Of a stretch of 64,000 bases of DNA, positions 5,194 to 22,436 are shown one piece after another. The notes below the pieces were generated by a model. The model did not search any database and had not been told where the DNA came from. It saw only the letters and a list, made by a program, of their open reading frames with translations. This DNA comes from Chloroflexi bacterium OHK40 (GTDB taxonomy: Bacteria > Chloroflexota > Chloroflexia > Chloroflexales > Chloroflexaceae). The position numbers were made by a program, and so were the translations under genes. The DNA is taken from NCBI GenBank assembly GCA_004367505.1, contig SFCB01000028.1:1-64000 (forward strand). Direction: 5' to 3'. Position 1 is the first letter of the stretch, and every line of letters starts with the position of its first letter.

Positions 5194-6282
5194 ATGCACG
5201 TGGCTGTAACCCCTGAGCTTCCCTCGCCTGGGGCCGCGCTCCATGCGCGCCCCGTGAATGTCCTGATCGCCTCCTACCTGGAGCCCGAGCATGTCGAGCG
5301 CATCCGCGCCGTGGACGCGCGGCTGCGCGTGAGCTACGAGCCCGACTTGCTGCCACCGCCGCGCTACCCAGCCGACCATACCAGTACGCGCTCCCGCAGC
5401 GCCGCCGACGAGGCCCGCTGGCGGGCGCTGCTCGCCGAGGCCGAGGTGCTCTTCGACTTCGACCACACCAACCGCCAGGCGCTGCCCGAGCTGGCGCCAC
5501 GGCTACGCTGGGTGCAGGCCACTAGCGCCGGGATCGGCCAGTTTGTGCGGCGCATGGGCTACGCCGAGCGCATGCCCGGGGTTGTCTACACGACGGCCAG
5601 TGGGGTACACGCCCAGCCCCTCGCCGAGTTCTGCGCCATGGCTATGCTCATGTTCGCCCGCAACCTCTGGCAGATGCAGCGCCTCCAGGCCGAGCGGCGC
5701 TGGGAGCGCTTCGGCGCAACCGACCTGGCGGGCCGTACGCTGCTGGTGCTTGGCCTCGGGCGGGTGGGTACGGCCGTCGCGCGTCTTGGCAAAGCCCTGG
5801 GGATGACGGTGCTCGGCGTGAAGCGCAGGCCCGCAGGTGCCGACCCACACGCCCTGGGCTGCGATGAGCTCTACGGGCCCGATAGGCTCGCCTCACTACT
5901 GCCACGGGCCGAGTTTCTCGTTATCGTGACGCCCCATACCGACGCGACCGAGCGGCTGGTGGGCGCGCCGGAGCTGGCCGCGCTGCCGCGTGGGGCCGTG
6001 GTGATCAACATCGGGCGCGGCCAGGTGCTCGACGAAACCGCCCTCACGGCAGCGCTGCAGGCGGGCCACCTGGGCGGGGCCGCGCTCGATGTCTTCGAGA
6101 CCGAGCCCCTTCCAGCCGAGAGCCCGCTCTGGGCCATGCCCAATGTGCTCGTGAGCCCGCACTCCGCCAGCACCAGCGATCGGGAGAATGGCCGGCTCAC
6201 CGAGCTCTTCTGCGATAATCTCCGCCGCTATCTCGCCGGTGCGCCGCTGTGTAACCTGCTGGACCTTGAGGCGCTGTATTGA
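5194..6282 (+). CDS. D-isomer-specific 2-hydroxyacid dehydrogenase family protein
   Basis: NAD-dependent 2-hydroxyacid/phosphoglycerate-dehydrogenase-type enzyme, 362 residues. The C-terminal NAD domain shows GLGRVGTAVARLGKALGM, the INIGRGQVLDE segment with the catalytic Arg, ALDVFETEPLP with the Glu, and VSPHSAS with the catalytic His. The N-terminal substrate domain is of the GyaR/CtBP-like variety. It starts two bases after the upstream stop and ends the operon. Probable role: interconversion of a 2-keto and 2-hydroxy acid derived from the transported compound. Confidence 0.92.
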   Translation: MHVAVTPELPSPGAALHARPVNVLIASYLEPEHVERIRAVDARLRVSYEPDLLPPPRYPADHTSTRSRSAADEARWRALLAEAEVLFDFDHTNRQALPELAPRLRWVQATSAGIGQFVRRMGYAERMPGVVYTTASGVHAQPLAEFCAMAMLMFARNLWQMQRLQAERRWERFGATDLAGRTLLVLGLGRVGTAVARLGKALGMTVLGVKRRPAGADPHALGCDELYGPDRLASLLPRAEFLVIVTPHTDATERLVGAPELAALPRGAVVINIGRGQVLDETALTAALQAGHLGGAALDVFETEPLPAESPLWAMPNVLVSPHSASTSDRENGRLTELFCDNLRRYLAGAPLCNLLDLEALY

Positions 6283-6350
6283 TGGCACGCCGCTTGCTGA
6301 TAGGGCTGCGAGCAACCTCTTCGCAACGCGCCTGCTAACCCCCTCTTTCG

Positions 6351-6370
6351 CGGCCGCCCACGGGCGGCCG
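6351..6370. terminator. GC hairpin between convergent genes
   Basis: A perfect 9-bp inverted repeat with a 2-base centre sits 69 bases past the 2-hydroxyacid dehydrogenase stop and 9 bases from the stop of the oppositely oriented TspO-like gene. No clear T-run follows on either strand, so it is a probable bidirectional terminator without a canonical tail. Confidence 0.5.
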
Positions 6371-6378
6371 TTGCCGAT

Positions 6379-7164
6379 CTACGGCCTGCGCGCCCGTAGG
6401 GCAGCGGCGGCGGCAGCGAGGGCAGCGGCCCCGCTGGCGACCATGGCCACGGGCCCGGCCAGGGGCGTTCCGGCATTCTTCGCGGCAATCCCGGCGAAGG
6501 CCCAGGCCAGGGTGAGCGGGTAGGCCGGGTCGCGCCGGGCGAGGCCAAGGGCCGTAGCCAGAGCGGCGCCGATCGCGAGCAGGCTGGCGGTCCATAGCTC
6601 GCGGCTCTGCTCCGTGCCGGTCCAGCCGGCGTCGTAGAGCGCCACCGTCACGTTGATGATCGTTGCGACGCTCACCCAGCCCAGATAGATGCTGAAGGGA
6701 AGCCGGGCCAGCAGCCACTCGGCCAGGGGGCGCGGGCCGTGGCCGAGGCGTGTGTCGGCCACAATGAGGGCGAGCAGCAGGCCGAGCATGGCGCCGAGCG
6801 TGAGCCCGAAGTGGTTGTAGTGCCAGAGCAGGAGCCAGGTGATGTTGGCCGCGCAGCTGGCGATGAAGGGCCAGGCCACTCGCCGCAGGCGTGGATTGCC
6901 CCGCTGGCTGGGCAAGGCCTGATAGACGGCGTAGCCCACCAGGCCACTGTAGATCAGGCCCCAGATGCTGAAGGTGTAGCCGGCAGGGATGATCGGGAGC
7001 GGGAAGCGGTCGGAGATTGCGCCGGTGGTCTGGCCATTGAGGGGCAGGCTGTTAGCGAGGGCGTTCGTGGCGATCGTGGCAGCCAGCGCCGCGATCACCG
7101 CGCCCTGGCGTCCGGACTCGGCTGGGAGCGAGGCGCCCTGGCTGCGGGGGAGGATGCTGGTCAT
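6379..7164 (-). CDS. TspO/MBR-related membrane protein (tryptophan-rich sensory protein-like)
   Basis: Integral membrane protein, 261 residues, with about seven hydrophobic segments. The stretch IIPAGYTFSIWGLIYSGL (residues ~58-75) and the later WLLLWHYNHFG and LPFSIYLGWVSVATIIN segments are characteristic of the long TspO-related family rather than the compact ~160-residue TspO. Canonical TspO binds tetrapyrroles and modulates porphyrin-linked regulation; whether this longer form does so is unknown. The ATG follows AAGGAG at a good distance. It is divergent from the M20 peptidase gene. Confidence 0.75.
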   Translation of the reverse strand: MTSILPRSQGASLPAESGRQGAVIAALAATIATNALANSLPLNGQTTGAISDRFPLPIIPAGYTFSIWGLIYSGLVGYAVYQALPSQRGNPRLRRVAWPFIASCAANITWLLLWHYNHFGLTLGAMLGLLLALIVADTRLGHGPRPLAEWLLARLPFSIYLGWVSVATIINVTVALYDAGWTGTEQSRELWTASLLAIGAALATALGLARRDPAYPLTLAWAFAGIAAKNAGTPLAGPVAMVASGAAALAAAAAALRARRP

Positions 7165-7356
7165 CGGGAACTCCTTGTATAATGGGCCATCTGTGATGTT
7201 GGACCTGTCCAGGAAGTTGGGCGTTGTGCTGGCGATCGCTCCAGGCGCCAGCCTACCGCTGACTCACCGCTGCGGGCGGCGGCGCCGGCCGCTTTCAGAC
7301 AGGTTCTCCATCGTTTCGTAGCGCCACGGCGCATGAGTAGTGTAGAGGCAACCCCT
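7165..7356. other. Divergent intergenic region
   Basis: Between the TspO-like gene (minus) and the M20 peptidase (plus). A TATAAT hexamer lies at about 7178-7183 on the plus strand, but I could not pair it with a convincing -35 element. No operator-like palindrome was seen. Confidence 0.4.
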
Positions 7357-8724
7357 ATGCCAGGCTGGGAATCCTACCTTGAGGCCAACCAGGCCCGCTT
7401 CACCGACGAGTTGCTCGACTTTCTGCGCATCCCGAGCATCTCCGCCATCCCCGCTCACGCCCCCGATGTACAGCGCGCCGCTGAATGGGTTGCCGCCCGG
7501 GTCACGGCGGCGGGTCTTGAGCATGCCCGGATCCTGCCCACCGGTGGCCACCCCGTCGTCTACGCCGACTGGCTCCACGCCCCTGGCAAGCCTACGGTGC
7601 TGATCTACGGCCACTTCGATGTGCAGCCGGTAGATCCGGTGAGCCTCTGGACGCACCCGCCCTTCGAGCCCCACATCGAGGATGGCCGGGTCTACGCCCG
7701 TGGCGCCAGTGATGATAAGGGTAACATGCTTGTGCCCATCCTGGCGATCGAGGCCATGCTCAAGACCAGCGGCGCCCTGCCGGTGAACGTCAAGGTCTTC
7801 TTTGAGGGCCAGGAGGAGATCGGGAGCCCGCAGATCGGGAGCTTCCTGCCGCACCATAAGGAGCTCTTCGCCTGCGATATGGTGCTGAGCGCCGACGGCG
7901 GCCAGTACAGCGAGACCGAGCCTGAGATCCTCGTGGCCCTGCGGGGCGGTTGCGGTGTGCAGATCGATGTGCGTGCCGCGAAGATGGATCTCCACAGCGG
8001 GCTCTACGGCGGCGTGGTGATGAATCCCATCCACGCGCTGGTGATGATCCTCAACTCGATGCGCTCCCCCGACGGGGTGATCACCGTCGAGGGCTTCTAC
8101 GACGATGTGCGCCCGCTCACCCCGCTCGACCGCGAGCGCATCGCTGCCGTCCCCTACGATGTCGAGGCCATCAAGGCCGAGCTACAGATCCCCGCCACCT
8201 TCAGCGAGGCTGGCTACACGCCGCGCGAGGCCAGTTGGGCCCGGCCTACCCTCGAGGTGAATGGGATCTGGGGTGGCTTCCAGGACGAGGGCATCAAGAC
8301 GGTGCTGCCCGCCGAGGCCCACGCCAAGATCACCTGCCGCCTGGTGGCCGACCAGGACCCCGAGCGGATCGTGCGTGCCTTGCAGGCCCACGTGGAGCGC
8401 AACACGCCCCCCGGCGTGACGGTGACGGTCACCCCGCTTGCCTTCCGTGCCTACCCCTACATGGTGCCGGCCGATGAGCCGGGCAACGCGGCGGTGCGCG
8501 AGGTGCTGCTGGAGCTCTACGAGAAAGAGCCCTACCATGTGCGTAGCGGCGGCTCGATCCCCGTCTGTACGCTCTTCCAGCGCGAGCTTGGCGCCTACAC
8601 CGCTAGCTTCGGCTTCGGGCTCTCCGACGAGCGCCAGCACTCCCCCGACGAGTTCTTCCGCCTGGCGAGCTTCCGCAAGGGGCAGACGGCCTACTGCAAG
8701 CTGCTTGAGCGCCTGGGACGCTAA
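7357..8724 (+). CDS. M20 family dipeptidase
   Basis: Zinc-dependent exopeptidase of the M20/ArgE/DapE/carnosinase-like group, 455 residues. Visible metal and catalytic motifs in order: YGHFDVQPVD (His, Asp), ARGASDDKGN (bridging Asp), FEGQEEIGS (catalytic Glu and metal Glu), LSADGG, and the late SDERQHSPDE metal His. A lid domain lies in the middle, with GGSIPVC near the C-terminus. I prefer ATG 7357 because AGAGG stands 8 bases upstream; an in-frame ATG at 7333 has no Shine-Dalgarno. It probably hydrolyses dipeptides or N-acyl amino acids in the cytoplasm. Confidence 0.92.
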   Translation: MPGWESYLEANQARFTDELLDFLRIPSISAIPAHAPDVQRAAEWVAARVTAAGLEHARILPTGGHPVVYADWLHAPGKPTVLIYGHFDVQPVDPVSLWTHPPFEPHIEDGRVYARGASDDKGNMLVPILAIEAMLKTSGALPVNVKVFFEGQEEIGSPQIGSFLPHHKELFACDMVLSADGGQYSETEPEILVALRGGCGVQIDVRAAKMDLHSGLYGGVVMNPIHALVMILNSMRSPDGVITVEGFYDDVRPLTPLDRERIAAVPYDVEAIKAELQIPATFSEAGYTPREASWARPTLEVNGIWGGFQDEGIKTVLPAEAHAKITCRLVADQDPERIVRALQAHVERNTPPGVTVTVTPLAFRAYPYMVPADEPGNAAVREVLLELYEKEPYHVRSGGSIPVCTLFQRELGAYTASFGFGLSDERQHSPDEFFRLASFRKGQTAYCKLLERLGR

Positions 8725-9125
8725 ATGGAACCACGGATCGCTTGCGGTACCTCGGAGAAGCACTACCCCCGCAGGGGCAGGCTCCGCTTGCACAGAGGCT
8801 GGCGTGGGGACGTGCGAACCGACCCATAGGCGTCGTTCCCGCGCATGCGGGAACTCAGGCCCCCCCGCTTGCGCGGGGGCAGGCCCCCCGGCGTCCGACC
8901 CTGGACGCCCGCCTGCGCGGGCGTGACCCCAAGTGTGCCGAGGTGTCGTTCCCGCGCAAGCGGGAACCCATCCCCCGCCTGCGCGGGCGTGACCCCACGC
9001 GCACCAGGGTGTCGTTCCCGCGCAAGCGGGAACCCAGGCCCCCCGCTTTCGCGGGGGCAGGCCCCCGGCGTCCTACCCTGGACGCCCGCCTGCGCGGGCG
9101 TGACCCACGCACGTGCGTTACGCTC
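8725..9125. repeat. Block of GC-rich palindromic (REP-like) repeats
   Basis: This 400-bp gap holds three copies of a palindrome of the form GTCGTTCCCGCG-nn-GCGGGAA (8832-8854, about 8945-8967 and 9011-9033). Between them are CCCCGCTT-n-CGCGGGG and CGCCCGCC-tg-CGCGGGCG palindromes. The first and last composite units (about 8832-8930 and 9011-9110) are nearly identical direct repeats of ~100 bp, with a shortened unit between them. The arms match the general architecture of widespread extragenic palindromes that begin GTC.TTCCCGC and end GCGGG..TGAC. Related copies lie at 46541-46660 and 59400-59440. No credible gene is present; reading frames through the block are Arg/Pro/Gly-rich shadows. Confidence 0.85.
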
Positions 9126-12373: not shown

Positions 12374-12865
12374 ATGCCGATCCTGATCGATGGCCACAAC
12401 CTGATCGGGCAGCTGCCCATGCTGAGCCTGGCCGACCCGGACGACGAGGCCAGGCTGGTGCTGATCCTGCGCCGCTACGCCGCCCGCCGGCGGGGTCGCC
12501 GGGTGATCGTAGTCTTCGACGGGGGTGTCTACGGCCACCCTGAGCAGTTGAGCGGCTATGGCGTCGAGGCGCATTTCGCGCGCTCCCCCGCCGACGCGGA
12601 TGCCGAGCTGATCCGCAAGATCAGAGCCATCCGCCGCCGCGACGAGTGGCTGGTGGTCAGCTCAGATCGGGCTGTGATTGGCGAGGCCCGCGCCCGTGGG
12701 ATCCCAACCCTGAGCGCCCAGGAGTTCGCCCGTCGCCTGGCCAGCCTCGACCAGCCACGCGCCTCGCTGAGCGCGAAGCGCAACGATCGCCCCCTGAGCC
12801 GCGAGGAGGTCGAGGAGTGGCTGCGCGTCTTTGGTGAGCCTGATAGTGGTGAGGAGGAGCCGTAG
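12374..12865 (+). CDS. NYN-domain protein (YacP/Rae1-like putative ribonuclease)
   Basis: 163 residues with the PIN-like NYN fold: LIDGHNLIG at the N-terminus (acidic metal residue plus Asn), VVFDGG, ADAELIRKI and VSSDRAV with the downstream acidic cluster. Relatives include Bacillus Rae1/YacP, a ribosome-associated endoribonuclease; this copy is of similar size. It is first in the 12374-17274 operon, one base before the methyltransferase GTG, but its link to that pathway is probably only positional. The start is ATG with no Shine-Dalgarno. Confidence 0.85.
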   Translation: MPILIDGHNLIGQLPMLSLADPDDEARLVLILRRYAARRRGRRVIVVFDGGVYGHPEQLSGYGVEAHFARSPADADAELIRKIRAIRRRDEWLVVSSDRAVIGEARARGIPTLSAQEFARRLASLDQPRASLSAKRNDRPLSREEVEEWLRVFGEPDSGEEEP

Positions 12866-12866
12866 G

Positions 12867-13715
12867 GTGGATTATACGACGATCCGGGAACAGAATCGCC
12901 GCTCGTGGAATGCGGTGGTGCCGGCGCACGCGAGCCACCGCCCCGGCCTCGCCGCCTTCCTGCGCTCCGGTGGCAGCACGCTCTTCCCCGAGGAGTTGGA
13001 GTTGCTCGGCGACGTGGCGGGCCGGTCGCTGCTGCACCTGCTCTGCAATGCCGGCCAGGATACGTTGAGCCTCGCCGCCCTTGGCGCGCGCGCCACCGGT
13101 GTCGACCTGAGCGACGCGGCGGTGGCCCGCGCCCTGGCGCTCAGCGCCGAGAGCGGCATCCCGGCCCGCTTCGTCTGCGCCGATGTCTACGACTACCTCG
13201 CCGAGGCCGCCGGGGCCGGCTTTGCGCGGATCTACTGCGGCTACGGCGCCATCTGCTGGCTGCACGATCTGGCGGCCTTCGCGCGGGGTGTGGCCGCCGC
13301 CCTCGCTCCGGGTGGTCGCTTTGCGCTTGTGGAGTTCCACCCGGTGGCGAATATGTTCGATCCGTCCTGGCGCCTCACCGCTGATTACCCGCAGGGCGGG
13401 GCGCTGCTCACCCTCGACGGCGTGGGCGACTATGTAGGCGCCGCCGGGGAGGGGCTGGCGCCCGGCGGCTACGCTGAGGGCGTGCGCGACTTCGCCAATC
13501 CCCACGCCTGCCACCTCTTCCGCTGGGGGGTCGGCGAGGTGGTGAGCGCCCTGGCCAGCGCCGGGCTGGCGATCGTGGCCCTCCGGGAGTACCCCTTCGT
13601 CAACGGCGAGCGACCTTTCGAGCGCATGCGTAGTGAGGGCCGCCGCCGCTACCCGCCTGCTGAGCTTCCCGCTATTCCGCTGATGTACGGTCTCGCCGCC
13701 GAGCGGCCGGTGTGA
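12867..13715 (+). CDS. Class I SAM-dependent methyltransferase
   Basis: 282 residues. The AdoMet fold is recognisable: LLHLLCNAGQDTLSLAALGARATGVDLSD is motif I with the acidic end of strand 2 (broken here by a C in place of the usual first Gly), followed by FVCADVYD (motif II) and LAPGGRFALVEFHP (motif III). The start is GTG 12867, two bases after the NYN stop and 12 bases downstream of GAGGAGG; an upstream in-frame extension to 12831 only overlaps the NYN gene. As it sits in a run of pterin- and riboflavin-type genes, it is a candidate tailoring enzyme for their product. Confidence 0.88.
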   Translation: MDYTTIREQNRRSWNAVVPAHASHRPGLAAFLRSGGSTLFPEELELLGDVAGRSLLHLLCNAGQDTLSLAALGARATGVDLSDAAVARALALSAESGIPARFVCADVYDYLAEAAGAGFARIYCGYGAICWLHDLAAFARGVAAALAPGGRFALVEFHPVANMFDPSWRLTADYPQGGALLTLDGVGDYVGAAGEGLAPGGYAEGVRDFANPHACHLFRWGVGEVVSALASAGLAIVALREYPFVNGERPFERMRSEGRRRYPPAELPAIPLMYGLAAERPV

Positions 13716-13727
13716 GCCAGGTGGTCT

Positions 13728-14096
13728 ATGGAGAGCGACCGAATCATCCTTGAAGGCATGGTCTTTTTCGGCTACCACGGCACGCGCCCCGAGGAGACGA
13801 CGCTGGGCCAGCGCTTCGTGGTAGATGTGGCGCTGGAGTTGAGCCTGCGTGCCGCCGGTGAGTCCGACGATCTGGCCGCCACGGTTGACTATAGCGCCGT
13901 GCATCGTAGCACCCGCGCCATCGTTGAGGGTCCACCCCTCAAGCTTACCGAGGCCGTGGCCGAGCGGATCGCCGGGGCCGTTCTGGCCGAGCACCCCGCT
14001 GTGCAGGCGGTGCAGGTGCGGGTACGTAAGCCCAATGTTCGCCTTGACGATACGGTGCTGGCCGGCTCCATTGTTGAGATTACGCGCCGACGATGA
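13728..14096 (+). CDS. folB: Dihydroneopterin aldolase family protein
   Basis: 122 residues, the family's standard length. Active-site features are all present: HGTRPEE (substrate Glu), TVDYSAVH (Tyr of the T-V-D-Y-S motif), KLTEAVAERIA and VRVRKPNV with the catalytic Lys. FolB cleaves dihydroneopterin to 6-hydroxymethyl-dihydropterin and glycolaldehyde and can epimerise at C2'. No FolK, FolP or FolE accompanies it, and the RibD-type reductase overlaps it by four bases. Its role may therefore be in the pteridine-like pathway of this operon rather than folate synthesis. Confidence 0.9.
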   Translation: MESDRIILEGMVFFGYHGTRPEETTLGQRFVVDVALELSLRAAGESDDLAATVDYSAVHRSTRAIVEGPPLKLTEAVAERIAGAVLAEHPAVQAVQVRVRKPNVRLDDTVLAGSIVEITRRR

Positions 14097-14773
14097 GCCC
14101 ACGCCCACAGATCACTCTCAGCTATGCCCAGACTCTCGATGGGCAGTTGGCCACGCGCACCGGCAGCTCGCAGTGGATCGGCGGCCCGGAGTCGCTGCGG
14201 TTCGCCCACGGGCTGCGCACCCGCCACGATGCCATCCTTGTGGGGATCGGTACCGTGCTCGCCGATGATCCGCGCCTCACCGTGCGGCTCGTGGACGGGC
14301 GAAGCCCGCTCCGCGTGGTGCTCGATAGCCGGCTCCGCGTGCCCCTCGGCGCCAGGGTGCTGCGGGAGGGCGCCGCCAGCGGGACACTGATTGCCTGTGT
14401 GGAGGGCGCCGACCCGGAGCGCCGTGCTGCGCTCCAGGCCCTGGGGGCGCGGGTGGTCGTTCTGCCGCCTGGCCCAGACGGCGGCGTAGCGCTGGAGGCG
14501 CTGCTCGATGACCTTTACGCGCTCGGGGTGGGCACGCTGATGGTGGAGGGCGGCGCGCGGGTGATCACCGCATTGCTGCGCGCCAGGCTTGCCGACCGGA
14601 TAGCCGTCTGTGTTGCGCCCCGCATCCTCGGCACCGGGCTCGCCGCCGTGGGCGACCTGGGGATCGCCCATCTCGCCGAGGCCCTGCTGCTTGATGAGCC
14701 CCGCGTGACGGCCTATGGCGCCGACCTGATCATCGAGGCCCGGATCAGTTACCCGGAGCGCCAGGCCGATTAG
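14093..14773 (+). CDS. RibD C-terminal-domain reductase (DHFR fold)
   Basis: Stand-alone reductase domain, 226 residues, without the N-terminal deaminase of bacterial RibD. Landmarks are SYAQTLDGQLATRTGSSQWIGG at the N-terminus, HDAILVGIGTVLADDPRLTVR and the late MVEGGARVI nucleotide-binding segment. Such enzymes use NADPH to reduce the ribosyl side chain of the pyrimidine formed from GTP by cyclohydrolase II. Stand-alone versions can act on the non-deaminated pyrimidine, as in fungi and archaea. It overlaps folB by ATGA. A GTP cyclohydrolase II gene faces this operon 2.7 kb downstream, so a GTP-to-reduced-pyrimidine route is plausible. Confidence 0.9.
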   Translation: MSPRPQITLSYAQTLDGQLATRTGSSQWIGGPESLRFAHGLRTRHDAILVGIGTVLADDPRLTVRLVDGRSPLRVVLDSRLRVPLGARVLREGAASGTLIACVEGADPERRAALQALGARVVVLPPGPDGGVALEALLDDLYALGVGTLMVEGGARVITALLRARLADRIAVCVAPRILGTGLAAVGDLGIAHLAEALLLDEPRVTAYGADLIIEARISYPERQAD

Positions 14774-14801: not shown

Positions 14802-15839
14802 GTGGAAGCGCTCACCGCCCGTGCCGTCTGGTTTGTTGCCCCGCGCCAGGTAGAGCTGCGGGAGGAACTGGTGCCACCGCCCGGCCCTGGCCAGGTGCGT
14901 ATTGCCGCTATCGCGTCGGCCATCAGCCACGGCACCGAGTTGCTCGTCTACCGGGGTGAGGTCGATCCGGCCCTCGAGCTGGATCTGCCGACGCTCGTGG
15001 GGAGCTTCGCCTTCCCGATCAAGTATGGCTACGCTAGTGTCGGCCAGGTGCTCGACGTGGGCGCCAGCGTGACGGGCCTGGCGCCAGGCGATCTGGTCTT
15101 TGTGCTGCACCCCCACCAGAGCCTCTACAACGCCTGCGCCGAGCTCGTTGTACCACTGCCGCAGGGCCTCACCCCCGCGCAGGGCCTCTTCTTCGCCAAC
15201 GCCGAGACGGCCCTCACCATCGCCCACGACGCGGCTCCGCGCCTGGGCGAGAGCGTGGTTGTCTTTGGCCAGGGTGTCGTGGGCTTGCTGGCTGCCCAGA
15301 TGCTCCGGCTCGCCGGGGCCGCCCGGGTGATCGCCGTAGACATGAACCCGCGCCGGCGCGCGCAGGCCCTGGCCCTGGGTGTGGACGCCGCCCTGGCCCC
15401 CGGACCGGAGCTCCCCGAGGAGCTGCGGGCGATCAATGGTGGGCGCCTCGCCGACCTCGCCGTGGAGGTGAGCGGCGCACCGGCCGCGCTGCAGGCCGCC
15501 ATCGGGTGCGTGCTCGACGAGGGGAGCGTGCTGGTGGCATCCTGGTATGGCCGCAAGCCGGTCACGCTGGATCTCGGCACACGTTTTCATCGGGGTCGCA
15601 TCCGGCTCCGTTCCACCCAGGTGGGCCGGCTGGCCCCCGAAACCTGGCCGCGCTGGGATCACCGCCGCCGCCGTGAGAGTGTGGCCGCTTTGCTGCCGCG
15701 CCTACGCCTCGATGAGCTGGTGAGCCACAGCCTCCCCGTCGAGCGCGCCGACGAGGCGTACCGCCTGGCTGAGCTCGGCGCCGCACTGCAGGTGGTCTTA
15801 ACGTACCGCGAGAAAGAGACGCTTCTATGTACGAGCTAG
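14802..15839 (+). CDS. Zinc-less medium-chain dehydrogenase (MDR), BchC-like subgroup
   Basis: 345 residues. The Rossmann part is clear: VVVFGQGVVGLLAAQMLRLAG with an acidic residue at the end of strand 2 (AVDMN). The N-terminal GroES-like domain has ISHGTELLVYRG where zinc alcohol dehydrogenases have a Cys-bearing CGSD motif, and the four structural-zinc cysteines are absent. This I-S-x-G-T-E form is typical of an MDR branch that includes bacteriochlorophyllide dehydrogenase BchC and related uncharacterised enzymes. It starts 28 bases after the reductase gene and overlaps the PTPS-like gene by 13 bases, implying tight coupling. Likely an NAD(P)-dependent oxidoreductase in the pteridine-like pathway. 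Confidence 0.86.
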   Translation: MEALTARAVWFVAPRQVELREELVPPPGPGQVRIAAIASAISHGTELLVYRGEVDPALELDLPTLVGSFAFPIKYGYASVGQVLDVGASVTGLAPGDLVFVLHPHQSLYNACAELVVPLPQGLTPAQGLFFANAETALTIAHDAAPRLGESVVVFGQGVVGLLAAQMLRLAGAARVIAVDMNPRRRAQALALGVDAALAPGPELPEELRAINGGRLADLAVEVSGAPAALQAAIGCVLDEGSVLVASWYGRKPVTLDLGTRFHRGRIRLRSTQVGRLAPETWPRWDHRRRRESVAALLPRLRLDELVSHSLPVERADEAYRLAELGAALQVVLTYREKETLLCTS

Positions 15840-16201
15840 GTGTCATCAGCCAGTTCGAGGCGGCCCATCGCCTCACCGGAGCGTTCGGGCCTGCTACACG
15901 GATGCACGGCCACACCTACCGCCTGGAGGTGCTAGTGCGTGGGCCGTCCCTGCGCCCGGACGGAACACTCTGCGATCTGGTGGCGCTCCAGGCCGCCGTG
16001 AGCGCGGTGGTTGGCGAGCTGCACTACCGCGATCTCGGTGAGGTGCCCGGGCTGGCCGGGGTCAATACGACTGCCGAGCATGTGGCCGCCTATTGCTGGC
16101 GTCAGCTGGCCGCCGCACTGGATGAGCCGGCGCTCGCGAGCCTGACGGTGCGGGTATGGGAGAACCCCGGCGCCTACGCGGCCTACGAGGGCGCGCTCTA
16201 A
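15827..16201 (+). CDS. 6-pyruvoyl/6-carboxy-tetrahydropterin synthase-like protein lacking catalytic Cys and Asp-His pair
   Basis: 124 residues, T-fold PTPS/QueD family. The three zinc ligands are in place: His14 (EAAHRL) and His27 and His29 (MHGHTY). The nucleophilic Cys, normally four residues before the first His of HGH, is Ala23. The usual LDH segment that gives the Asp-His proton relay reads LHY (His66-Tyr67). Glu84 (NTTAE) and the C-terminal WENP Glu, which bind the pterin ring, are kept. So it can probably bind a pterin or pyrimidine at zinc but should not run the standard reaction. It overlaps both neighbours (13 bases and 1 base) in the operon. I recall similar FGPA-x-R-x-HG proteins in actinobacterial clusters, from memory only. 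Confidence 0.85.
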   Translation: MYELGVISQFEAAHRLTGAFGPATRMHGHTYRLEVLVRGPSLRPDGTLCDLVALQAAVSAVVGELHYRDLGEVPGLAGVNTTAEHVAAYCWRQLAAALDEPALASLTVRVWENPGAYAAYEGAL

Positions 16202-17274
16202 TGCGCCTGGCCTTCGTGACCGTGGGCGACCCGGCGCGGCTCACCGGGGGCTACCTCTATCACCGTGAAGTCTTTGCCCGGCTCAGGGCCCGTGGCCTGG
16301 CCCTCGATGAGATTGTCGCGGCGGGCGCGGAGCTGGCCGAGCAACTCGCCGCAGCGCCGGCCCTTGGCGCTCGGCACCGCCCCGAGGCATACACCGCGAC
16401 CGTGGTCGATGCGCTGGCCCGCGCGGTCTGCGCGCCATGGCTCGACCGCTGGCGTGCCCGGGGGCCACTGGTGGCCATGGTCCACGAGCTGCCCTCGGTT
16501 GCGGGCGCGGGCGACGCCGCCGAGCTGGATTGCGAGGCGCCCCTGCTGCGGGCCGACCGGCTGATTGCCGTGAGCGAGGACGGCGCCAGGCGTCTCGCCG
16601 CCCGGGGCGCCCCGCCCGAGCGGATCGTGGTGGCCTCCGGGGGCTATGATCGCCTGGGAGCAGCGCCGGCCCGCCGGCCAGCCGGCTTGCCGCCGACCGT
16701 GCTCGCGGTTGGCCAGTGGATTCCGCGCAAAGGCCTGCTGGAGCTGGCGCGGGCATGGGCGCTGATTGCGCCCTCGCGCCCCGGCTGGCGCCTGGAGCTC
16801 GTCGGTGAGACGAGCGCCGACGGGCCATATGCCGAGGCGGTGCATCGGGCGCTGGCAGCGGCGCCGGTGGGCAGTGTGGCGGTACGGGGTCCGCTGAGCG
16901 ACAACGAACTGGCCAGGGCCTACGCGGGCGCGGCGATCTTCGCGCTTCCGTCCCGCTACGAGGGCTACGGGATCGCCTTTGCCGAGGCCCTGGCCTTTGG
17001 GCTGCCGGTCGTTGGCTGCGCCGTGGGCCCCGTGCCCGCGCTGGTAGGCCCCGAGGCCGGGTTCCTGGTGCCGCCCGGCGATGAGCGGGCCCTGGCTGGG
17101 ACCCTGGCCCTCCTGATCGACGACGCCGCGCTGCGCGAGCGCATGGCCGGCGCCGCCCGCGCTCGGGCCATCGCTTTGCCCACCTGGGACGACTGTGCCG
17201 CGCGCTTCCTGGCCGCCGTCGAGCAGGCCGTCGCGGAGCGCCGTGGGGCGATCCCGCCCTCGCTGCTGCCCTGA
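16201..17274 (+). CDS. Glycosyltransferase family 4 (GT-B) protein
   Basis: 357 residues from an ATG overlapping the previous stop (TAATG). The C-terminal nucleotide-sugar domain is clear: VLAVGQWIPRKGLLELARAW, RLELVGE, and the PSRYEGYGIAFAEALAFGLPVVG stretch carrying the E-x7-E motif. The N-terminal acceptor domain begins MRLAFVTVGDPARLTGGYLYH, with the glycine-rich loop expected for GT-B enzymes. Co-translation with the PTPS-like gene suggests it glycosylates the product of this operon. Pteridine glycosides are known from green bacteria and cyanobacteria, so this is a reasonable but untested idea. Confidence 0.88.
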   Translation: MRLAFVTVGDPARLTGGYLYHREVFARLRARGLALDEIVAAGAELAEQLAAAPALGARHRPEAYTATVVDALARAVCAPWLDRWRARGPLVAMVHELPSVAGAGDAAELDCEAPLLRADRLIAVSEDGARRLAARGAPPERIVVASGGYDRLGAAPARRPAGLPPTVLAVGQWIPRKGLLELARAWALIAPSRPGWRLELVGETSADGPYAEAVHRALAAAPVGSVAVRGPLSDNELARAYAGAAIFALPSRYEGYGIAFAEALAFGLPVVGCAVGPVPALVGPEAGFLVPPGDERALAGTLALLIDDAALRERMAGAARARAIALPTWDDCAARFLAAVEQAVAERRGAIPPSLLP

Positions 17275-17475: not shown

Positions 17476-18075
17476 CTAGAGCAGGTGACCCATGCGCTCG
17501 CGCTTGGCCCGCAGGTAGGGCCAGTTATGGTGATTAGGCGTAACCGTCACAGGCTGGCGCTCCACCACGCACACGCCGTGCTCCTCAAGGCCGCTCATCT
17601 TGAGGGGGTTGTTGGTTGCCAGCGCCACGTAGCGCACACCGAGATCCAGCAGCATCTCCGCTGCGGCCCGATAGTCACGGAGGTCGTCGGGGAGACCAAG
17701 GGCGCGGTTGGCATCCACGGTATCGAGGCCCGCCTCCTGGAGCGCGTAGGCGCGGATCTTATTCCCGAGGCCGATTCCCCGGCCCTCCTGGCGCAGATAG
17801 ATCAGCACACCACGCCCCGTACCCTGGAGCAGGCGCAGCGTCTGATCGAGCTGCTCGCCGCAGTCACAGCGCTGCGAGCCGAAGACATCGCCAGTGAGGC
17901 ACTCGGAGTGGATGCGCACCAGTGCCGGCGCCCCGTCGTCTACCGGGCCCACCGTCAGGGCCACGTGCTCCTTTCCCTCCGGCGCGACATAGACGTGCAT
18001 CTGGAAGGTACCATACCGGGTCGGGAGGGTGGTGCTGGCGATGCGCTCGGTAGAGCGCCGTGCGACCTGGGTCAT
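17476..18075 (-). CDS. ribA: GTP cyclohydrolase II
   Basis: 199 residues, stand-alone RibA (no fused DHBP synthase). Zinc ligands lie in SECLTGDVFGSQRCDCG, the active-site RQEGRGIGL follows, and the KIRAY motif keeps the Tyr (E. coli Tyr105) whose loss elsewhere changes the product. It should therefore make the normal diamino-ribosylamino-pyrimidinone phosphate with formate release. The C-terminal TNNP, GHLL and NPNN-like parts are normal. The start ATG 18075 is backed by AAAGGAG; a longer frame to 18114 is rejected. It faces the 12374-17274 operon and may serve riboflavin, that operon's product, or both. Confidence 0.94.
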   Translation of the reverse strand: MTQVARRSTERIASTTLPTRYGTFQMHVYVAPEGKEHVALTVGPVDDGAPALVRIHSECLTGDVFGSQRCDCGEQLDQTLRLLQGTGRGVLIYLRQEGRGIGLGNKIRAYALQEAGLDTVDANRALGLPDDLRDYRAAAEMLLDLGVRYVALATNNPLKMSGLEEHGVCVVERQPVTVTPNHHNWPYLRAKRERMGHLL

Positions 18076-18422
18076 GGAACGACTTCTCCTTTGTAGCGAG
18101 TACAGCATCGCCATAGCGTGGGACTCGGAGCCTTGCCACCCGGTAGGTCAACGTATCGGGGGCTTGACACCGCCGTAGGCGGGGGCGATCCTTCCTGCTG
18201 GGCGCAAACGCTGATACAACGTCGACGCCGCACGCTGCGTCCCTGCGCAGGCGACCGAGCGATGGTGGTAATTCCACACCTCCTGCCACTAGCGCGGGGG
18301 GCGTGCGAGTTCTGCCTGACAGTATACCCTGATTTAATGCTGCAACACCATCAGGCGGGAGGTTGGTTGGCAAGCGCCGCTCCTTCCTTCTGACGTTACG
18401 CAAGCCCTACCTCTGCACCATA

Positions 18423-18530: not shown

Positions 18531-19967
18531 ATGGCTGAGCCCTTTCTCGACGGCGAGACAGTGGCTTTCCCCGAGGCCGAGCGTCTGGCTGTGCGCAACC
18601 CTGCCGACGACTCGCTGATCGACAGTGTGCCCGAGGGCGGCGCCCCTGCGGTGGATGCAGCCGTGGAGAGCGCCCAGCGTGCGTTCGGAGCCTGGCGCGA
18701 CACACCGGCTGCCCGCCGCGGTGAGATCCTGGCTGCCGCCGCCCATCACGTGCTTCAACAGCGCGACGAGCTCGCCGCTCTGCTCACCCGCGAGCAGGGC
18801 AAGCCCCTGCGCGAGGCGGCGCTGGAGATTACCCGCTTCGTTCATACGCTCGAGCACTACGCAGGCCTGGCGAAGAACATCCGCGGCGGCTACGTGCCCG
18901 ACCTGGATGTGGGCGCCTACGGGATGATTGTGCGTCGCCCGCTCGGTGTGATTGCCGCGATCGTACCCTGGAACTTCCCTACCACGTTGCTTGGCAACAA
19001 GCTCGGCCCGGCCCTGATCTGCGGCAACACGCTGGTTGCCAAGCCTGCTGAGACAACCCCGCTCACCACGTTGCGTATTGCCGCGCTCATGCACGAGGCC
19101 GGCCTGCCTAAAGGTGTGTTCAATGTGATCACCGGCAGTGGCCCGGCCACCGGCCAACTCCTTGCTACCCACCCCCAGGTGCGTAAGGTGGCCTTTACCG
19201 GCTCCACCCCGGTGGGCAAGCGGCTGGCCGCCCTGGTGGCCGACGATCTCAAGCGTATGACGTTGGAGCTCGGTGGCTCCGACCCACTGATCGTCTGCGA
19301 CGATGCCGATCTCGAGGCCGCCGCCAGTGCCGCCAGCGTGGGCCGCTTCTTCAACTGTGGCCAGGCCTGTCTTGCTACCAAGCGCCTGTTTGTGTTCGAT
19401 TCGGTGGCCGATGCGTTCATCGCCAAACTCGTTGCGAAGGTCGAGCGTCTCAGGATTGGCCCCGGCATCGCCGAGCGCGTCACCACCGGGCCGCTGCACA
19501 CCGCCCGTGGCCGCGCGCTGATCGAGGCTCAGGTGGCCGACGCACTCGCCTCAGGTGCTGAGTTGCTCGTTGGCGGCCGCCGCCCGGAGGGCCCCGGGCT
19601 CGATCAGGGCTACTTCTACCAGCCCACCTTGCTGCTGGAGCCGAAGCCTACCGCGCGTGTTGCGTGCGAGGAAGTGTTCGGCCCCGTGCTGCCCATCTGG
19701 CGCGTGAAAGACCTCGACGAGGCCATCGCCCGCGCCAACGACTCGCCCTTTGGCCTCGGCTCGGCGATCTGGACCCACGACCTCGCCCGGGCCTCGTTCG
19801 CCGCCGAGCACCTTCAGGCCGGCTACACCTGGGTCAACTCGGTCAACCGTGTCTACGACGAGCTCCCCTTCGGCGGTTGGAAGCAGAGCGGCTACGGCAA
19901 GGAGCACGGCAGTGAGGCCCTCGACTTCTACCTGGAGACGAAGGCCGTGGTGATGAAGTGGCGCTAG
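18531..19967 (+). CDS. Aldehyde dehydrogenase family protein
   Basis: NAD(P)-dependent ALDH, 478 residues, close in type to succinate-semialdehyde dehydrogenases. Visible: PWNFPTTLL, KPAETTPLT, FTGSTPVGK for the cofactor, LELGGSDP with the general-base Glu, and FFNCGQACLA with the catalytic Cys. The start ATG follows AAGGAGGCG. It is the first gene behind the operator-controlled promoter. A paralogue lies at 31614. One of them may oxidise a ring-opened semialdehyde-CoA (the role played by PaaZ-N or BoxD elsewhere); which one is not decidable here. Confidence 0.93.
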   Translation: MAEPFLDGETVAFPEAERLAVRNPADDSLIDSVPEGGAPAVDAAVESAQRAFGAWRDTPAARRGEILAAAAHHVLQQRDELAALLTREQGKPLREAALEITRFVHTLEHYAGLAKNIRGGYVPDLDVGAYGMIVRRPLGVIAAIVPWNFPTTLLGNKLGPALICGNTLVAKPAETTPLTTLRIAALMHEAGLPKGVFNVITGSGPATGQLLATHPQVRKVAFTGSTPVGKRLAALVADDLKRMTLELGGSDPLIVCDDADLEAAASAASVGRFFNCGQACLATKRLFVFDSVADAFIAKLVAKVERLRIGPGIAERVTTGPLHTARGRALIEAQVADALASGAELLVGGRRPEGPGLDQGYFYQPTLLLEPKPTARVACEEVFGPVLPIWRVKDLDEAIARANDSPFGLGSAIWTHDLARASFAAEHLQAGYTWVNSVNRVYDELPFGGWKQSGYGKEHGSEALDFYLETKAVVMKWR

Positions 19968-20007
19968 GGTCGCGCTGCGGTAAAGATGCACAACGAGGTG
20001 AACGGCT

Positions 20008-21582
20008 ATGGTGGTCATCCCCGAGCGCTATAACGCGAGCGAGCTGATCGACCGCAACCTGGAGCGCGGGCGCGCTGCGAAGGTGGCGATCGTCTGCGGC
20101 GATGAGCAGCTGAGTTACGGCGAGTTGGCGGCGCGGATCAATTGCTTCGGCAATGCTCTGCGTGGGCTTGGCGTGCGCCGCGAGGAGCGCGTGCTGCTGG
20201 CCCTGCTCGATACGCCGGCCTTCCCCACGGCTTTCCTCGGCGCGATGCGGATCGGCGCGGTGCCTATCCCTACCAACACCCTGCTCGCCGCCGACGAGTA
20301 CCGCTACATGCTCGCCGATAGCTACGCCCGTGTTGCCGTTGTCGATGCCGCCCTGCTCCCCACCTTGCGCGATGCGCTCACCGGCCTGCGCGAACCGCCT
20401 TTGCTGATCGTCGCCAACGGCCCCGCCGACGATGGCTACGACCTCGCCGCTCTGCTCGCCGACGCCGATGAGCGGCTCGACCCATGCGACACCCACCGCG
20501 ACGATATGGCTTTCTGGCTCTACAGCTCCGGCAGCACTGGCCGTCCCAAGGGCGCCGTCCATCGCCACCGCGATATGGTGTACACCTGCGAGACGTACGC
20601 CCGCCACGTGCTCCAGATCGCCGAGGACGATGTCACGTTCTCGGCCTCGAAGCTGTTCCACGCCTACGGCCTCGGCAACAACCTCAGCTTCCCCTACTGG
20701 GCGGGTGCAACCACCGTGCTCTTTCCGGGCCGCCCCACACCGCTCGCCGTGCTGGAGACGGCCCAGCGCACCCGGCCCTCGCTCTTCTTCTCGGTGCCTA
20801 CGCTTTACAACGCCATCCTCAACACCCCCGGCGCAGAGCACTACGATCTCAGCTCGGTCCGGCTGTGCGTCTCCGCCGCCGAGGCGCTGCCCCCAGAGGT
20901 CTGGCGGCGCTGGAAGGAGCGCTTCGGGCTGACGATCCTCGACGGGATCGGCAGCACCGAGATGCTGCATATCTTCCTCTCCAACACACCCGAGCGCCTG
21001 CGCCCCGGTTCCAGTGGTGTGCCGGTGCCCGGCTACGACGCCCGCCTGGTGGGCCTCGACGGCCAGCCGGTGGCGAGCGGTGAGCCCGGCGCGCTCCATG
21101 TGCGTGGCGGCAGCGCGGCTTCGCACTACTGGCACAACGACGAGAAGACCCGCCAGACCATGATCGGCGAGTGGATGGTCACCGGCGACTACTACCGCGT
21201 CGACGAGGACGGCTTCTATTGGTACGAGGGCCGCATCGACGACATGATCAAGGTCGGCGGTAACTGGGTCTCGCCAATCGATATCGAGAATGCGCTCACC
21301 GAGCACCCCGCCGTGCTGGAGCCGGCGGTGATCGGCGTGCCCATCGACGGGCTGACCCGCATCAGGGCCTTTGTGATCCTGCGCGAGGGCCACGCCGCCA
21401 GCGATGCGCTGGCCGTCGAGCTCCAGGAGTGGTGCAAGGCCCGGCTGCGGCGCTACCAGTACCCGCACCTGGTGAGCTTCGTGGCCGAGTTGCCAAAAAC
21501 CGTCACCGGCAAGATCCAGCGCTTCAAGCTGCGCCAGCAGCACGAGACAGAGCTGGCTGCGGCGGTGGGGGTGCAGGGATGA
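20008..21582 (+). CDS. Benzoate-CoA-ligase-like AMP-forming acyl-CoA ligase
   Basis: 524 residues, ANL superfamily. The P-loop-like YSSGSTGRPKG motif (about residue 172), the GIGSTEM adenylate motif, GDYYRVDEDG and the C-terminal PKTVTGKIQRFKL with the catalytic Lys are all present. The N-terminal and central sequence (ERYNASELID, GVRREERVLLALLDTPAFP, STEMLHIFLSN) is of the benzoate-CoA ligase group, so the substrate is probably an aryl or related carboxylic acid. It should form the CoA thioester that the downstream PaaABC-like oxygenase attacks. It overlaps the amidohydrolase by ATGA. Confidence 0.9.
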   Translation: MVVIPERYNASELIDRNLERGRAAKVAIVCGDEQLSYGELAARINCFGNALRGLGVRREERVLLALLDTPAFPTAFLGAMRIGAVPIPTNTLLAADEYRYMLADSYARVAVVDAALLPTLRDALTGLREPPLLIVANGPADDGYDLAALLADADERLDPCDTHRDDMAFWLYSSGSTGRPKGAVHRHRDMVYTCETYARHVLQIAEDDVTFSASKLFHAYGLGNNLSFPYWAGATTVLFPGRPTPLAVLETAQRTRPSLFFSVPTLYNAILNTPGAEHYDLSSVRLCVSAAEALPPEVWRRWKERFGLTILDGIGSTEMLHIFLSNTPERLRPGSSGVPVPGYDARLVGLDGQPVASGEPGALHVRGGSAASHYWHNDEKTRQTMIGEWMVTGDYYRVDEDGFYWYEGRIDDMIKVGGNWVSPIDIENALTEHPAVLEPAVIGVPIDGLTRIRAFVILREGHAASDALAVELQEWCKARLRRYQYPHLVSFVAELPKTVTGKIQRFKLRQQHETELAAAVGVQG

Positions 21583-22436
21583 TTGAGGGCCTTGAGTTGA
21601 TTGATGCCCACGTTCACCCGCCCCACCGCGGCAGCCTCAAACCGGCCTGGGTTGAGTGGGCCAAGGCCTTTGGCAAAGGCGTGCCGCTCGACGAGCTGTA
21701 CGATCCGGCCGGGCACCTTATTCCCGCCCGCTTCGACGCCTACATGGCTGGTGAGGGTGTGGACCTGGTGCTGATGCTCTGCGAGTATAGCCCCAAGGCG
21801 ACCGGCATTCAGCCGATCGAGGACCTGCTGCCGCTGGTGGAGTACAACCCCGCCCGTTTCAGAATTCTGGCCAACCTCAACCCGCACTATCACTTCCCGC
21901 TCGTGGAGGAGTTGAAGCGCCAGGTGAGCTACGGCGCGGTGGGGCTCAAGCTGCACACGGTACACGGCGGCTTTGCGGCCAACGACGCCATGCTCTACCC
22001 AGTGTATGGCTACTGCGAGCAGGAGCGGCTGCCGGTGGTCTACCACTGCGGTACCAGCACCTTCCCCGGCGGCAGCAACCGCTTCGCCGACCCGCTGGTG
22101 ATCGAGGACGTGGCGCGCGACTTCCCCGGCCTGAACATCGTGCTAGCCCACGGCGGGCGCGGCTGGTGGTACGATGCGGCGGCCTTTCTGTCCCTGATGC
22201 GGCCAAACGTCTGGATCGAGGTCTCCGGGCTGCCGCCGCGTAAGCTGCCCGAATATTACGCCCGCTACGACTTCGCGCGCCTGGCCCGGCGCATGATCTT
22301 TGGCACCGACTGGCCCGGTGTCCCTGGGATCCGCACCAACGCCGCTGCTATCGCCGAACTCGGCCTCGATCGCACCACCCTCGCCGCGATCTTTGCCGGC
22401 AATGCCCGCGCCGTCTACCGCCTCGGGGAGGGGTGA
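21579..22436 (+). CDS. Amidohydrolase_2 (ACMSD-like) family protein
   Basis: 285 residues from an ATG overlapping the ligase stop; longer frames are rejected. Metal-dependent TIM-barrel hydrolase or decarboxylase: LIDAHVHPP (HxH), KLHTVHGGF, VYHCGTS (metal His), VLAHGGRGWW (His) and FGTDWPG (metal Asp) follow in the right order. This family includes decarboxylases and hydrolases of aromatic-degradation intermediates. Here it may prepare the acid substrate for CoA ligation. The substrate cannot be named from sequence. Confidence 0.87.
   Translation: MIEGLELIDAHVHPPHRGSLKPAWVEWAKAFGKGVPLDELYDPAGHLIPARFDAYMAGEGVDLVLMLCEYSPKATGIQPIEDLLPLVEYNPARFRILANLNPHYHFPLVEELKRQVSYGAVGLKLHTVHGGFAANDAMLYPVYGYCEQERLPVVYHCGTSTFPGGSNRFADPLVIEDVARDFPGLNIVLAHGGRGWWYDAAAFLSLMRPNVWIEVSGLPPRKLPEYYARYDFARLARRMIFGTDWPGVPGIRTNAAAIAELGLDRTTLAAIFAGNARAVYRLGEG

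What the first reader, a model, noticed from the sequence alone, without database searches (positions are those of the whole stretch)
15827..16201. PTPS-family protein keeps zinc but loses the catalytic Cys and Asp-His pair
Seen: zinc ligands His14, His27 and His29 and the ring-binding Glu residues are present, but the Cys four residues before HGH is Ala23, and the LDH motif is LHY (His66-Tyr67). Known: 6-pyruvoyl- and 6-carboxy-tetrahydropterin synthases need the Cys and the Asp-His relay. Inferred: a different reaction, or a binding role, on a pterin- or pyrimidine-like ligand.
Basis: partly seen in the sequence, partly recalled or inferred. Interest (0 to 1): 0.75.

Follow-up and report, generated by a model that had tools for sequence, protein, structure and literature searches.

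The report
Orphan pterin-synthase relative in conserved operon
The gene encodes a relative of pterin-making enzymes that has lost the residues needed for the known reaction but kept its zinc-binding site; it belongs to an already named but uncharacterised subfamily (PTPS-IV) and sits in a widely conserved operon fed by the enzyme that normally starts riboflavin synthesis, even though this genome cannot make riboflavin.

Summary
Confirmed: window 15827-16201 encodes a 124-aa T-fold PTPS homologue with all three zinc histidines (H14, H27, H29), Ala23 in place of the catalytic Cys, and His66-Tyr67 in place of Asp-His. It is not a one-off. It belongs to the described but uncharacterised PTPS-IV subfamily (signature FGPAQ; closest structure SCO6650, PDB 3D7J). 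PTPS-IV splits in two: a zinc-site-retaining HGH/LHY clade (Chloroflexota, Thermomicrobiota, Rubrobacter; includes the window) and an HGA clade (mostly Proteobacteria, Actinobacteria, Gemmatimonadota; includes SCO6650). Both share a conserved core: RibD_C reductase, zinc-less BchC-like dehydrogenase, PTPS-IV, GT4 glycosyltransferase, methyltransferase, often GTP cyclohydrolase II. New evidence: this genome lacks RibB and RibH, yet keeps one stand-alone GCH II beside PTPS-IV. Across 61 genomes, stand-alone GCH II tracks PTPS-IV (18/21 against 3/40) and so does FolB (15/21 against 2/40). The operon is therefore a separate GCH II-fed pathway, not riboflavin, queuosine or F420. Best mechanism (inferred): reductase plus dehydrogenase turn the ribosylamino-pyrimidine into a 2'-keto sugar, PTPS-IV closes it to a dihydropterin (a split GTP cyclohydrolase I), FolB trims it, and it is methylated and glycosylated. 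Chemistry untested.

The parts
15827..16201 (+). PTPS-IV protein, 124 aa; H14/H27/H29 kept, Ala23, His66-Tyr67, E84, E112
14802..15839 (+). BchC-like medium-chain dehydrogenase without the catalytic-zinc Cys/His motifs; overlaps the PTPS start by 13 nt
   Evidence: (bchC 3e-25, below cut-off)
14093..14773 (+). Stand-alone RibD_C-type pyrimidine reductase (no deaminase domain); overlaps FolB by 4 nt
   Evidence: (TIGR00227 175 bits, above the 150 cut-off)
13728..14096 (+). FolB (dihydroneopterin aldolase family), the only copy in the genome
   Evidence: (above the folB cut-off)
12831..13715 (+). Class I SAM methyltransferase, conserved in the operon of the HGH clade (start codon uncertain)
16201..17274 (+). 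GT4 glycosyltransferase; start ATG shares one base with the PTPS stop (TGATG); the listed ORF starts at 16156
17476..18114 (-). Stand-alone GTP cyclohydrolase II (Tyr at the E. coli Y105 position), the only copy in the genome, convergent with the operon
12374..12865 (+). YacP-like NYN domain gene upstream; conserved neighbour in part of the family, probably not part of the pathway

Best explanation
Shown: the protein is a zinc-ligand-retaining member of PTPS-IV, an orphan T-fold subfamily without the catalytic Cys and Asp-His. It is encoded in a conserved operon with RibD_C reductase, a zinc-less BchC-like dehydrogenase, GT4, methyltransferase, FolB and a stand-alone GCH II, and this set occurs in genomes that lack riboflavin synthesis. 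Inferred: GCH II makes 2,5-diamino-6-ribosylamino-pyrimidinone 5'-phosphate. RibD_C reduces C1' to the ribityl form and the dehydrogenase oxidises C2' to a ketone, together doing by redox what GTP cyclohydrolase I does by Amadori rearrangement. PTPS-IV binds the ring through its conserved Glu and, in this clade, uses zinc to polarise the keto/hydroxyl group, so that the 5-amino group closes on C2' to give 7,8-dihydroneopterin 3'-phosphate. FolB then cleaves or epimerises the side chain, and the methyltransferase and GT4 give a methylated, glycosylated pterin. Confidence by layer: PTPS-IV membership and loss of PTPS/QueD chemistry about 0.9; dedicated GCH II-fed pathway about 0.85; pterin-type product about 0.5; PTPS-IV as the ring-closing enzyme about 0.3.
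For: Closest by sequence and fold is SCO6650 (3d7j: E 7e-15; TM 0.93, rmsd 1.5 A; model pLDDT 96.7). PMC5445326 gives the PTPS-IV signature FGPAQ and neighbours PF00925 and PF01872. Operon order MTase-FolB-RibD_C-ADH-PTPS-GT4 is conserved in relatives. The ADH-PTPS-GT4 core also occurs in the HGA clade: ADH 55/61, GT4 58/61, RibD_C 43/61 loci. G000 has no RibH and no RibB, and one GCH II and one FolB, both here. Stand-alone GCH II against PTPS-IV across 61 genomes: 18/21 against 3/40, Fisher 1e-9; among RibH-less genomes GCH II 10/12 against 3/21; FolB 15/21 against 2/40, Fisher 8e-8; FolB never co-occurs with a strong HPPK (0/17 against 25/44). The two FolB exceptions (G014, G025) are divergent (24-25% identity), and the G014 one lies near FolE in another context. 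GCH II co-varies with PTPS-IV inside genera g5, g6 and g24, and in several genomes it lies on another contig than PTPS-IV, so this is not mere linkage.
Against: No biochemistry; no metabolite identified. Ring closure after formation of the 2'-ketone may be spontaneous, leaving PTPS-IV another job. FolB is absent from 6 of 21 PTPS-IV genomes and from the HGA-clade loci (0/61), so it is accessory. The HGA clade lost the third zinc ligand, so zinc cannot be essential to a reaction common to all PTPS-IV. Fisher tests treat related genomes as independent. Three PTPS-IV genomes lack a detected stand-alone GCH II (G001, G006, G021).
Confidence: 0.4

Rival explanations
1. PTPS-IV in this operon is a non-catalytic or weakly catalytic ligand-binding protein: it holds or carries a labile pyrimidine or pterin intermediate for the dehydrogenase, methyltransferase or glycosyltransferase.
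For: The catalytic residues of known PTPS reactions are lost while Glu anchors stay; the HGA clade loses a zinc ligand too and still conserves the operon.
Against: The window clade keeps the third zinc His in 31/31 tree rows and a clade-typical His66-Tyr67, which suggests selection on an active site.
Confidence: 0.25
2. The pathway does not make a pterin: the reduced ribitylamino-pyrimidine is modified (oxidised, methylated, glycosylated) as a pyrimidine or rearranged into another heterocycle, with PTPS-IV catalysing a different cyclisation.
For: RibD_C and GCH II-type enzymes occur with both clades, whereas FolB is limited to the HGH clade. GCH II-derived azapteridines such as toxoflavin exist (from memory).
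Against: FolB co-occurs strongly with PTPS-IV in the Chloroflexales and without a strong HPPK, which favours a dihydroneopterin-like intermediate in this clade.
Confidence: 0.25
3. The neighbourhood is just a riboflavin gene group and PTPS-IV is a divergent QueD/PTPS/folate enzyme beside it.
For: Pfam PTPS, RibA and RibD_C annotations.
Against: No RibB or RibH in this genome; PTPS-I, II and III motifs all absent; below the QueD and 6PTHBS cut-offs; a separate Cys-containing tandem PTPS beside FolE exists at G000:C241.
Confidence: 0.05
4. PTPS-IV serves F420 (deazaflavin) synthesis, as stated in a review as unpublished work.
For: Statement in PMC5041015.
Against: No CofH match in this genome, although the same search finds at least weak matches in 11 of 14 control genomes. 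The statement concerns the archaeal cofactor.
Confidence: 0.03

Closest known systems
PTPS-IV subfamily of COG0720, e.g. SCO6650 of Streptomyces coelicolor (PDB 3D7J)
   Same: T-fold, FGPA motif at the Cys position, L-x-Y/F/L-R/Q motif instead of LDH, NT-x-x-E, conserved Glu; same operon partners (ADH, GT4, RibD_C, GCH, a methyltransferase)
   Different: Window clade has HGH (third zinc His kept) instead of HGA, LHY instead of mostly LNY/LDY, mostly FGPAT instead of FGPAQ; has FolB, a different methyltransferase and ordinary Tyr-type GCH II; no creatininase found (0/39 against 10/61 loci)
QueD (PTPS-I), 6-carboxytetrahydropterin synthase
   Same: Fold (TM about 0.83), zinc histidines, pterin-anchoring Glu
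   Different: No CxxxHGH Cys, no Asp-His; below the NCBIfam cut-off; no queuosine genes among the conserved operon partners
GTP cyclohydrolase I (FolE), as a mechanistic analogue
   Same: T-fold superfamily, zinc, and the proposed ring closure equals the second half of its reaction
   Different: Ring opening would be done by GCH II and the sugar isomerisation by a reductase/dehydrogenase pair; no sequence membership claimed
FolB dihydroneopterin aldolase
   Same: Operon FolB passes the curated cut-off
   Different: Genomes with this FolB lack a strong HPPK, so its role here is probably not folate synthesis

Membership tests
PTPS-IV (COG0720) | FGPAQ signature at the catalytic Cys position | tested here: met
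   FGPAT in the window (4 of 5 letters); the clade varies T/S/V/Q/N, with FGPAQ in its Roseiflexaceae members; FGPAQ throughout the HGA clade
PTPS-IV (COG0720) | Gene neighbourhood with PF00925 (GCH II) and PF01872 (RibD_C) (PMC5445326) | tested here: met
PTPS-IV (COG0720) | Groups with SCO6650 apart from Cys-containing PTPS/QueD | tested here: met
   One side of a branch, SH-aLRT 92, with only three outgroup rows; best PDB match by sequence and fold
PTPS-IV (COG0720) | Absence of the third zinc ligand, as in SCO6650 | tested here: not met
   HGH in the window and its clade; HGA in the SCO6650 clade. Treated as a clade difference, not as a family-defining feature.
QueD / PTPS-I | CxxxHGH catalytic Cys | tested here: not met
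   Ala23
QueD / PTPS-I | Asp-His relay in LDH | tested here: not met
   His66-Tyr67
PTPS-II (tetrahydrobiopterin) | CxxxxxHGH | tested here: not met
   Gly21 at that position
PTPS-III (folate) | ExxHGH | tested here: not met
   Thr24 at that position
Zinc-dependent T-fold enzyme | Three zinc histidines | tested here: met
   Aligned positions H14, H27, H29; actual zinc binding not testable with these tools
Riboflavin pathway member | RibB and RibH present in the genome | tested here: not met
F420 pathway member | CofH (FO synthase subunit) in the genome | tested here: not met
Split GTP cyclohydrolase I (proposed mechanism) | Ring closure of a 2'-keto pyrimidine to dihydroneopterin phosphate | not testable with these tools
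   Needs enzymology

The most novel reading that the evidence does not exclude
A GTP cyclohydrolase I-independent route to pterins: GCH II, a RibD_C reductase and a zinc-less dehydrogenase perform a redox version of the Amadori step, and a PTPS-IV T-fold protein closes the ring to dihydroneopterin phosphate, which feeds a widespread glycosylated pterin cofactor or natural product.
Probability: 0.3. Interest if true: 0.85.

Novelty: new variant of a known kind. Interest (0 to 1): 0.5.

Why it matters
PTPS-IV has remained an orphan although hundreds of genomes in several phyla carry it. Showing that its operon goes with its own GCH II and, in one clade, with FolB in genomes without riboflavin synthesis separates it from the known pathways of this enzyme family. 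It names a substrate and an order of steps that can be tested with five purified proteins. It also warns against annotating this protein as QueD/PTPS, and this GCH II and RibD_C as riboflavin enzymes.

Tried and rejected
Riboflavin gene group: rejected, RibB and RibH absent. F420: rejected for this genome. QueD, PTPS-II and PTPS-III: motifs absent. FAPy-forming GCH III as in Streptomyces: the window enzyme keeps Tyr at E. coli Y105, while Streptomyces has Met and Actinomadura His, and no creatininase is found near HGH-clade loci (0/39). I first took the C148 RibD_C hit for a full RibD; translation shows no deaminase domain. G014/G025 looked like PTPS-IV-free versions of the module; G014 has a divergent FolB with an SDR, FolE and GCH II, so it is a different cluster. 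Literature searches for the gene cluster, pterin glycosides and SCO6650 found no functional study in the held library; the paper on COG0720 promiscuity is not held.

Full report
Observation. The ORF at 15827-16201 (+) is a real gene: 124 aa, no stops, Pfam PTPS at 1.2e-30. It overlaps the preceding dehydrogenase gene by 13 nt and shares one base with the following glycosyltransferase (TGATG), as in a translationally coupled operon. Aligned with E. coli QueD, the zinc histidines are all present (H14, H27, H29), the catalytic Cys is Ala23, and the Asp-His pair is His66-Tyr67.

Family. The protein scores below the NCBIfam cut-offs of QueD (57 against 89 bits) and of the 6PTHBS subfamily (57 against 125). 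Its best solved relative by sequence is SCO6650 of Streptomyces coelicolor, 3D7J (7e-15), and by fold as well (TM 0.93, rmsd 1.5 A; QueD about 0.83; model pLDDT 96.7). From memory, the 3D7J paper reports that SCO6650 lacks the active-site zinc and the catalytic triad and does not catalyse the PTPS reaction; that paper was not read here. A neighbourhood-network study describes this group as PTPS-IV, signature FGPAQ, 561 sequences, with PF00925 and PF01872 as neighbours (PMC5445326). A review links PTPS-IV to archaeal F420 as unpublished (PMC5041015).

Two clades. In a tree with the trait columns masked, the zinc-ligand state HGH against HGA splits PTPS-IV once (SH-aLRT 84 and 89; few columns, short search, three outgroup rows). 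The HGH clade holds Chloroflexota, Thermomicrobiota and Rubrobacter and nearly always has LHY; the HGA clade holds Pseudomonadota, most of the Actinomycetota found, Gemmatimonadota, Myxococcota and a cyanobacterial MAG. Since canonical QueD has HGH, retention is the simpler ancestral state and the SCO6650 branch lost the ligand (inference).

Operon. Chloroflexales and Rubrobacter relatives share FolB, RibD_C, ADH, PTPS and GT4 with a methyltransferase, and often YacP or a convergent RibA. In the HGA clade ADH, GT4 and RibD_C persist at 55, 58 and 43 of 61 loci, contig ends not excluded; a different methyltransferase is found at 50 of 61 and a creatininase-type protein at 10 of 61. FolB is only in the HGH clade (25/39 against 0/61) and creatininase only in the HGA clade (0/39 against 10/61). 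The dehydrogenase is BchC-like and lacks the usual catalytic-zinc Cys/His motifs in all sequences aligned. GCH II in the window has Tyr at E. coli position 105; the Streptomyces cluster enzyme has Met and the Actinomadura one His. From memory, the S. coelicolor homologue SCO6655 with Met stops at the formylated intermediate, and creatininase-family proteins deformylate it, which would lead to the same diamino-pyrimidine; a formamidase acting on this intermediate is reported in PMC9478397.

A pathway of its own. The window's genome (100% complete, 3.5% contamination) has no lumazine synthase and no DHBP synthase, so it cannot make riboflavin by the standard route, yet it keeps one GCH II, beside PTPS-IV. 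Its two other RibD_C-domain proteins carry no deaminase domain in the stretches read. In 61 genomes of the order, stand-alone GCH II is found in 18 of 21 with PTPS-IV and 3 of 40 without (Fisher 1e-9). Among the 33 without RibH, any GCH II is found in 10 of 12 against 3 of 21. FolB is found in 15 of 21 against 2 of 40. The two FolB exceptions are divergent, and the one read in detail lies in a different cluster with FolE. No FolB genome has a strong HPPK (0/17 against 25/44; six have only weak matches), so this FolB is probably not an ordinary folate enzyme. In several genomes GCH II lies on another contig than PTPS-IV, so co-occurrence is not a by-product of linkage. Inside genera g5, g6 and g24, presence of PTPS-IV and of stand-alone GCH II varies together. 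The test does not otherwise correct for phylogeny.

Mechanism (inferred). GCH II gives 2,5-diamino-6-ribosylamino-pyrimidinone 5'-phosphate. A RibD_C protein without deaminase reduces C1' and leaves the 2-amino group, as pterins need. BchC oxidises a secondary alcohol; oxidation of C2' by its relative here would give the same amino-ketose that GTP cyclohydrolase I reaches by Amadori rearrangement. Closure of the 5-amino group on C2' gives 7,8-dihydroneopterin 3'-phosphate, and FolB is the classical next enzyme. PTPS-IV, a T-fold relative of GTP cyclohydrolase I with the ring-binding Glu and, here, a zinc site, fits the ring-closing step. Methyltransferase and GT4 would finish a methylated pterin glycoside. 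Every chemical step is untested; ring closure could be spontaneous and PTPS-IV a binding protein.

Verdict. What is new here is the zinc-ligand-retaining clade with its FolB-containing operon, and the evidence that GCH II and RibD_C belong to it and not to riboflavin synthesis.

Noticed in passing
G000:C241:42315-43821 (L001, L044): A tandem fusion of two Cys-containing PTPS domains (GRCTRPYGHGH and GPCNNPNGHGH) directly followed by FolE; similar paired matches occur in many relatives. The second half has LDY-HH rather than LDH.
   Followed up: partly
61 relatives: 25 genomes have a strong HPPK but no FolB match at all, so how these Chloroflexales make the HPPK substrate is unclear; possibly another PTPS replaces FolB, as PTPS-III does elsewhere.
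   Followed up: no
L132 (G014:C79) 5489-8741; L133 (G025:C52): A divergent FolB (24-25% identity to the window's) near stand-alone GCH II; in L132 read in detail: FolB, a glycosyltransferase-2-like ORF, SDR, then FolE and GCH II on the other strand, without PTPS-IV.
   Followed up: partly
L135 (G036:C92) 5652-6856: Stand-alone GCH II followed by a partial second copy of the GCH II C-terminal part.
   Followed up: no
window 18531-22436 (+): Aldehyde dehydrogenase, benzoate-CoA ligase family protein (TIGR02262 633 bits, above cut-off) and an apparent amidohydrolase in a row, suggesting an aromatic-acid degradation operon.
   Followed up: no
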